Assembly (NCBI RefSeq): GCF_002215035.1 | Contig: NZ_NKFP01000006.1 | Coordinates: 942,530 to 1,006,529, forward strand | Origin: Leptolyngbya ohadii IS1 | GTDB taxonomy: Bacteria > Cyanobacteriota > Cyanobacteriia > Elainellales > Elainellaceae | Direction: 5' to 3' | DNA length: 64,000 nucleotides | Shown: one piece after another, positions 55,907 to 58,289 of the stretch | How the letters are laid out: every line of letters begins with the position of its first letter | Position numbering within the stretch: the first letter of the stretch is position 1 | Program-made: the position numbers and the translations under genes | The notes under the pieces: generated by a model | The model's database searches: none | What the model saw: only the letters and a program-made list of their open reading frames with translations | Told to the model about the DNA's origin: nothing

Positions 55907-56116
55907 ATGAAAACTTCAAACACGATTAACACGGAGCAGGTTCCGACCGTTGCCCCGGCTTATAACGGTGCCGATCGCAATGCCTGGATTTTTGGCTGGA
56001 ATCCTCAGCAAGAGCTGTGGAACGGTCGTCTTGCCATGATTGGTTTTGTGGCTTATTTGCTGTGGGATCTGGCGGGCTACAGCGTTCTGCGCGATGTGCT
56101 TCACCTGATTCGCTAA
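55907..56116 (+). CDS. hli: High-light-inducible protein (Hlip/SCP)
   Basis: A 69-residue single-span protein of the chlorophyll a/b-binding-like family. The chlorophyll-binding motif ELWNGRLAMIGF is at residues 36-47, inside the membrane helix that continues VAYLLWDLAG. Hlips bind chlorophyll and carotenoid and protect photosystem assembly under light stress in the thylakoid. The first 30 residues are a soluble N terminus. Many cyanobacteria have several copies; only one is in this window. No HLR1-type light-response box was recognised upstream. Confidence 0.94.
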   Translation: MKTSNTINTEQVPTVAPAYNGADRNAWIFGWNPQQELWNGRLAMIGFVAYLLWDLAGYSVLRDVLHLIR

Positions 56117-56317: not shown

Positions 56318-56773
56318 ATGCAAAACTCCTCGAACGTTTCGGCTAATTATTCGATTCGATTTACTGCCCTCGGTATCGGCTTGTTGTTCCTGCTGCTGGG
56401 ACTAGCTGGCTTTGTGCCCGCTTTTGTGGCTCCGCCAGATTTTGTGCCTGCAATGGGCTTTGGCTACCTGTTTGGGTTGTTCCCGACTAACTACTTCCAC
56501 AATGCGATCGGTATTTTGGTGGGGCTGTGGGGCATCGCTGCATTCACCAGCCTGACGGGATCGATCGTGTTTAACCGCATTTTTGCGATCGTCTATGCCT
56601 TAGGCGCTGTCCTGGGTCTAATTCCCTTCACCAATACCCTGTTTGGCATTACGCCGCTGCTGGGCAACAATGTCTGGCTGGATGCGCTGGTAGCTGGAAT
56701 TGCCTTCTACTATGGCTTTGTGAAGTCCGCGCAGATCGCGCCAAATTCCTCGTCGGCTCAGCCTAGCGTTTAG
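56318..56773 (+). CDS. DUF4383 membrane protein
   Basis: A 151-residue integral membrane protein with four spans (about 13-35, 60-83, 88-110, 118-138). The segment FGYLFGLFPTNYFHNAIGILVGLWG is the hallmark of DUF4383, a family found in cyanobacteria and actinobacteria. Function unknown. It lies 200 bp behind the Hlip gene on the same strand. A candidate small RNA gene follows in the same direction. Confidence 0.88.
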   Translation: MQNSSNVSANYSIRFTALGIGLLFLLLGLAGFVPAFVAPPDFVPAMGFGYLFGLFPTNYFHNAIGILVGLWGIAAFTSLTGSIVFNRIFAIVYALGAVLGLIPFTNTLFGITPLLGNNVWLDALVAGIAFYYGFVKSAQIAPNSSSAQPSV

Positions 56774-56968
56774 GTTGTACGGCTAAGAATTGGAAATTCA
56801 ATCAGCTAGAATTTTAATGATGGGGTGGGCTGCTTGCCTGCCCTTTCACTCGTTTGGCACTGCTTCAGGCTGTTCAGAAACAGCGGAATTTCGCTACCGG
56901 AGATTCGTGTACTGTGCGGTAAAATTCGTGCCTCAAATTAAGCCGAATTCATATTTTTTCTAAAAACA

Positions 56969-57061
56969 TATAATTCCCTTATTTTTCCTCGCTACCTTAG
57001 AGTTAGCGAATGACACCGACTCAACCTCAATTCCTGACGACCGGGAGTTGGGGTATTTTTT
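56969..57061 (+). ncRNA. Candidate small RNA gene
   Basis: A perfect TATAAT at 56969-56974 is followed, from a predicted start near 56981, by a perfect six-pair hairpin tcgcta/tagcga (56989-56994, 57004-57009), an unpaired linker of about 15 bases (57010-57024) and a 12-pair terminator hairpin (57025-57036 / 57042-57053, three G-U, five-base loop) with a T-tract to 57061. Expected product about 80 nt. The gap 56774-57107 has no ORF, and the terminator is 250 bp from the end of the DUF4383 gene. The layout is like Yfr1, but the Yfr1 core actcctcacac is absent. No good -35 box. Confidence 0.5.
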
Positions 57062-57107
57062 ATGTCTACTTTTTCTGCCTCCTCCTTTTTGCTGCCTATC
57101 GATATCC

Positions 57108-58289
57108 TCATTCCGATGGCTGAAGGGACTGCCGCTTGAACCAGACGATGGCCCCCAACACCAAGATCATCATAGGAATGCCGCCCAGATTAACCGCTGC
57201 CCAGCCGTAATGCTCGTACACGCTGCCCGACAGCAAAATGACCGCCGCCACAAAAGCAAACATCAAGAAATCGTGGGCTGCCTGGGTTTTTGCTTTTTCC
57301 TCCGGGTAGTATGCCTGGGTGAGCAGGGTAGTGGAGCCGATGTAGAGAAAATTCCAGCCAATCCCCAGCAAAGTGAGGGCGATCGTAAAGCTGAACAAAT
57401 TAGACTGCACCAGATTGATGCCAATACAGGTCAGGCTTAGCACCGCTCCCGTGCTAATCAGCGGCAATATGCCAAATCGGGCGATCAGTGCCCCCGTGAA
57501 AAATGAGGGTGCAAACATTCCCAGAACGTGCCACTGCATTACATTCGCTGCATCGTGAAACGGATGATTGTCCGCTACCATTGCCAGCGGCGTTGCAGTC
57601 ATCACAAACGCCATCACGCCATAGCCGAGCATACTTCCCAGTACCGAGACAATAAAGATGGGCTGACGCATAATTACGCCGATCGATCGTCCCTTGTCCT
57701 GTTCAAAGCGTCTGGGCTGCGGCAGTTTTACCCCCAGCAATAGAATCAGTGCCGCAAACTGGAGCAGAATAATCAGTCCGACAGATCCGCTAAAGCGAGC
57801 ATTGGGTAGCCAATCCTTTGCCAGGTTTGCCAGCTGTGGACCTGCGACAGCCGCAATGACGCCACCCGCAATCACAAAGGAAATCGCCTGCGATCGCCCT
57901 GCCTCTGTCGTTGTTTCTGCCGCCGCAAATCGATAAAATCCCACAAAGCTATTGAAGCTGCCAAACAAAAGGGTTGCCCCACAGAACAGCAAAAACTGCC
58001 GGGAGACGATCGCATAGAATGCCAGCGCTGCGCCGAACAGTCCCAGCAGCACACCCAACATAAATCCCTTTTGCCGTCCAATCCGCTGCATCAGCAGGGA
58101 AGCCGGAATGGTGCCGACCATCGTGGCAATTTGCAGTAGAGCGAGCGGGAGGGTGACAAGAGACTGATTCGCGGCGATCGATTGTCCGACCAGGGCGGAG
58201 GTCGTGAAAAGAATGGTGCTGCCAGTCATTGCGAGTGCCTGACAGAGGGCAAGCAGAAGGACGGTGAGGTGGGCGGGGTTGGTGAACAT
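57108..58289 (-). CDS. MFS transporter
   Basis: A 393-residue membrane protein with 12 predicted spans of the major facilitator superfamily. The conserved loop between spans 2 and 3 reads LMQRIGRQKGFMLGVLLG (about 65-82). It resembles the drug-efflux or unknown-substrate group often annotated YfcJ/YbfB-like. No ligand can be assigned. It is transcribed alone on the minus strand; the 280-bp leader contains a 14-bp tandem array and the dapL terminator lies beyond it. Confidence 0.88.
   Translation of the reverse strand: MFTNPAHLTVLLLALCQALAMTGSTILFTTSALVGQSIAANQSLVTLPLALLQIATMVGTIPASLLMQRIGRQKGFMLGVLLGLFGAALAFYAIVSRQFLLFCGATLLFGSFNSFVGFYRFAAAETTTEAGRSQAISFVIAGGVIAAVAGPQLANLAKDWLPNARFSGSVGLIILLQFAALILLLGVKLPQPRRFEQDKGRSIGVIMRQPIFIVSVLGSMLGYGVMAFVMTATPLAMVADNHPFHDAANVMQWHVLGMFAPSFFTGALIARFGILPLISTGAVLSLTCIGINLVQSNLFSFTIALTLLGIGWNFLYIGSTTLLTQAYYPEEKAKTQAAHDFLMFAFVAAVILLSGSVYEHYGWAAVNLGGIPMMILVLGAIVWFKRQSLQPSE

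What the first reader, a model, noticed from the sequence alone, without database searches (positions are those of the whole stretch)
56969..57061. Free-standing promoter/hairpin/linker/terminator block: likely small RNA
A perfect TATAAT, a perfect six-pair hairpin, an unpaired linker of about 15 nt and a 12-pair terminator with T-tract lie in order in a gap without ORFs, 250 bp from the end of DUF4383. This is the architecture of trans-acting sRNAs such as Yfr1, but the Yfr1 core is absent, so it may be a different family.
Basis: partly seen in the sequence, partly recalled or inferred. Interest (0 to 1): 0.62.

Follow-up and report, generated by a model that had tools for sequence, protein, structure and literature searches.

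The report
Genus-restricted cyanobacterial small RNA candidate
A roughly 80-base stretch between two cyanobacterial genes looks like a small stand-alone RNA gene, because a 32-base core in front of its transcription-stop hairpin is kept in the one other held species of the genus although the surrounding DNA has been scrambled; it matches no catalogued RNA family, but its expression and targets are untested.

Summary
The described block is really there: TATAAT at 56969-56974, a 6-bp hairpin (56989-57009), a single-stranded linker and a 13-bp terminator with a T6 run (57024-57061), in a gap with no convincing ORF. The terminator is one of three of that strength in the 64-kb window; the TATAAT has no -35. 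The other held species of the genus (G001) has one copy, beside the same convergent MFS transporter gene. There 29 of 32 bases (57003-57034) are identical, while four-fold sites of the MFS gene are only 44% identical and the rest of the gap does not align. In G001, DUF4383 lies elsewhere and all genes for over 4 kb upstream point the other way, so the forward terminator has no gene to serve. This supports a free-standing small RNA and argues against a DUF4383 3' UTR. What is conserved is the linker and the 5' arm of the terminator; the TATAAT and the 5' hairpin are not, and the G001 terminator hairpin is much weaker. No other homolog turned up in about 390 genomes of the class. It is not Yfr1: both genomes carry a genuine Yfr1 elsewhere. 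Most likely a genus-restricted trans-acting sRNA with unknown targets.

The parts
56969..56974 (+). candidate -10 box (TATAAT), no -35; TSS would be near 56981
   Evidence: not conserved in G001
56989..57009 (+). 5' hairpin, 6 pairs
   Evidence: not kept in G001
57003..57034 (+). conserved core TTAGCGAATGAC(A/C)CCGACT(CA/TG)ACCTCAATTCC; its unpaired part (57010-57023) is the proposed base-pairing region
   Evidence: 29 of 32 identical in G001 at 44% neutral identity
57024..57061 (+). intrinsic terminator, 13-pair stem with T6
   Evidence: 10 of 13 pairs still possible in G001 but far weaker there
56981..57061 (+). proposed small RNA, about 80 nt
   Evidence: inferred from the -10 box and terminator
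56818..56846 (+). terminator-like hairpin behind DUF4383 (weak T tract), which could end that gene's transcript before the block
   Evidence: fold of 56811-56850, -19.1 kcal/mol

Best explanation
An independent small RNA gene of about 80 nt on the + strand, transcribed from a promoter in the 56774-56980 gap (probably the TATAAT at 56969) and ended by the terminator at 57024-57061. It most likely acts in trans by base-pairing of the conserved linker region (AGCGAAUGACNCCGACU, perhaps with the adjoining ACCUC) with mRNAs. Shown: the anatomy, the conservation of the core against a saturated neutral background, and independence from DUF4383. Inferred: transcription, the start site and the base-pairing mode. 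Unknown: the targets.
For: Fold z = -3.4. Homolog in the other held species of the genus: E = 1e-9 in the genome search, 5e-13 within the gap. 29 of 32 identical in the core against 80 of 180 (44%) at four-fold sites of the adjacent MFS gene, binomial P = 6e-8 (the 32-base stretch was chosen after seeing the alignment, so this P is optimistic). The rest of the gap does not align. In G001 the genes upstream (XRE regulator, histidine kinase) and downstream (MFS) are all on the other strand, so the forward terminator has no upstream gene. The DUF4383 ortholog (79% identical) lies on another contig there, without the element. Terminator register: 86.5% of cells paired against at most 51% when slid (partly circular because the structure comes from one of the two sequences). 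In the window the hairpin is far stronger on the + strand than on the - strand (-18.6 against -6.8).
Against: Only two genomes carry it, and in G001 the hairpin is weak (-7.1 kcal/mol, whole-RNA z about 0 to +1) and equal on both strands. The -10 box and 5' hairpin are not conserved. There is no -35. No compensatory changes. No expression data.
Confidence: 0.66

Rival explanations
1. It is the 3' UTR and terminator of the DUF4383 mRNA, possibly a 3'-end-derived RNA, not an independent gene.
For: DUF4383 is the nearest upstream gene on the same strand, 250 bp away.
Against: In G001 the DUF4383 ortholog is on another contig with unrelated downstream sequence, while the element stays beside MFS with no upstream + gene. 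DUF4383 in the window has a hairpin of its own at 56818-56846.
Confidence: 0.1
2. The conserved block works as DNA or as part of the MFS 3' UTR on the - strand (protein-binding site, mRNA 3'-end element, or roadblock between convergent transcripts).
For: The linkage to the MFS 3' end is the only synteny kept. In G001 the hairpin is equally stable on both strands.
Against: The T tract is on the + strand only in both genomes; in the window the hairpin is much stronger on +. The 3' flanks of MFS orthologs outside the genus show no such block (by eye; by search).
Confidence: 0.16
3. A short coding sequence: ATG at 57010 opens a 37-codon frame with a hydrophobic stretch.
For: Frame open in the window; the first four codons are kept with one synonymous change.
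Against: G001 has TGA as codon 5, and the window frame would read through the terminator.
Confidence: 0.03
4. A chance or decaying leftover: a terminator relic without present function.
For: The G001 terminator is weak relative to the window, and the promoter is not conserved.
Against: 91% identity of the core at saturated neutral divergence points to purifying selection in both lineages.
Confidence: 0.05

Closest known systems
Yfr1 (RF01116), cyanobacterial sRNA
   Same: Size and order of parts: 5' hairpin, unpaired conserved stretch, terminator; intergenic.
   Different: The Yfr1 core ACUCCUCACAC is absent; no Rfam match to Yfr1 in the block at either threshold; genuine Yfr1 lies elsewhere in both genomes. 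Yfr1 is reported in all cyanobacterial genomes (PMC6974561), this element only in one genus.
Other cyanobacterial trans-acting sRNAs (PsrR1, NsiR4, IsaR1)
   Same: Intergenic, short, ended by an intrinsic terminator (general knowledge).
   Different: Those are reported from many cyanobacteria (general knowledge); no sequence comparison with them was made here other than through whatever Rfam holds.

Membership tests
Yfr1 (RF01116) | Fully conserved single-stranded core ACUCCUCACAC | tested here: not met
   Absent from the block; present at three other places in this genome, one of them a full Yfr1.
Yfr1 (RF01116) | Covariance-model score above gathering (38 bits) | tested here: not met
   No hit in the window; the real Yfr1 in this genome scores 57.9.
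Intergenic trans-acting bacterial sRNA (kind, not a family) | Own intrinsic terminator and no upstream gene on that strand | tested here: met
   Window terminator; G001 context. The G001 terminator is weak.
Intergenic trans-acting bacterial sRNA (kind, not a family) | Own promoter | tested here: inconclusive
   TATAAT without -35, not conserved; G001 has at best TAAAAT about 55 nt upstream of the core.
Intergenic trans-acting bacterial sRNA (kind, not a family) | Conserved unpaired region in related species | tested here: met
   29 of 32 identical in a congener; the linker is predicted unpaired in the window, partly paired in G001.
Intergenic trans-acting bacterial sRNA (kind, not a family) | A short transcript that pairs with mRNA | not testable with these tools
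   No expression data; a rough seed search found no shared target.

The most novel reading that the evidence does not exclude
A new, lineage-specific sRNA family of cyanobacteria, with a 32-nt conserved core unlike any catalogued family, in which the core rather than the 5' hairpin carries the function.
Probability: 0.55. Interest if true: 0.4.

Novelty: new member of a known kind. Interest (0 to 1): 0.3.

Why it matters
If expressed, it adds a lineage-specific regulator to the few known cyanobacterial sRNAs and shows that an sRNA gene can keep its core while its promoter, 5' hairpin and neighbours turn over. The expectation is an ordinary, lineage-specific sRNA, not a new mechanism.

Tried and rejected
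Rfam on the whole window and on the gap with permissive thresholds: nothing relevant. Sequence-model search of 390 genomes of the class: beyond the two members, the best matches (E 0.003-0.05) were viewed as sequence and three were checked against ORFs; they look like coding or chance matches, several in one genus are one shared coding site, and the G042 match is only a similar terminator. Flanks of MFS orthologs in the family: no block seen outside the genus. Target search with the reverse complement of the linker: fewer hits than the reversed control, and the one shared intergenic hit pair is not orthologous. Duplex energies rank MFS 20th and DUF4383 18th of 43 window genes, so no sign that the neighbours are targets.

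Full report
Observation. The predicted RNA 56981-57065 folds at -26.7 kcal/mol against -16.3 +/- 3.1 for shuffles. The terminator carries most of this; the 5' part alone has z = -2.0. Terminators of at least 12 pairs occur at three places in 64 kb and at none in three shuffles; TATAAT occurs six times. There is no -35 box.

Context. Upstream on the same strand lies DUF4383 (56318-56773, PF14325), with a hairpin of its own at 56818-56846. Downstream and convergent lies an MFS transporter (57108-58289, -). A 37-codon frame from ATG 57010 runs through the terminator into the MFS 3' end.

Conservation. Of 60 relatives, only the one other held species of the genus, G001, gives a significant match. 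It lies beside the orthologous MFS gene (81% identical protein), 5 bp from that gene's end instead of 47. In the core 57003-57034, 29 of 32 bases agree; over 60 bases 49 agree. Four-fold sites of MFS agree at 44%, that is, near saturation, and the rest of the gap does not align. The core has therefore most likely been under selection. In G001 the next genes upstream, an XRE regulator and a histidine kinase, are on the - strand, and so is MFS. The DUF4383 ortholog lies on another contig with different downstream sequence. So the + strand terminator of G001 can only belong to a transcript that starts in the 217-bp gap or is antisense to the XRE gene.

What is not conserved. The TATAAT, the 5' arm of the first hairpin, and part of the terminator 3' arm. 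In G001 10 of 13 terminator pairs can still form, three of the pairs differing on one side between the two genomes and three broken, but the best local hairpin has only -7.1 kcal/mol and is no stronger than on the other strand. This is the main weakness of the sRNA reading and leaves room for a DNA-level or - strand function. The 37-codon frame has a stop at codon 5 in G001, so it is not a conserved protein.

Distribution. A sequence model of the two members found no further convincing member in 390 genomes of the class; the best remaining hits look like coding or chance matches. MFS orthologs in other genera have different 3' flanks. The genus has only two held species, so genus-wide conservation is an extrapolation.

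Relation to Yfr1. The order of parts resembles Yfr1, but the Yfr1 core is missing, and both genomes have a genuine Yfr1 at another place (57.9 bits). A fully conserved motif and presence in all cyanobacterial genomes are reported for Yfr1 (PMC6974561). The block is not a member.

Mechanism. The most economical reading is a trans-acting sRNA whose conserved linker pairs with mRNAs. The linker is predicted unpaired in the window. No target was found, and the neighbours show no unusual complementarity. Transcription itself is inferred, not shown.

Noticed in passing
L251:1468-1526 (-) and L256:1490-1543 (+): Both congeners carry, besides a full Yfr1, a second RNA-like unit with the complete Yfr1 core (ACACUCCUCACACCACA) and a GC-rich terminator but without the usual 5' hairpin; it scores 25 bits, under the Rfam cut-off of 38, and its terminator stem seems to differ by an A-U to C-G exchange. 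Possibly a second, shortened Yfr1 copy.
   Followed up: partly
57010-57123 (+): 37-codon frame with a hydrophobic stretch overlapping the terminator and the MFS 3' end; broken by a stop in the congener.
   Followed up: yes
56818-56846 (+): Hairpin GGGTGGGC-TGCTT-GCCTGCCC behind DUF4383; similar GGGTGGGC hairpins appear in the MFS flanks of two other genomes (L166, L167).
   Followed up: no
55907-56116 (+): Small chlorophyll a/b-binding-like (HLIP type) protein, 69 aa, just over the Pfam cut-off.
   Followed up: no
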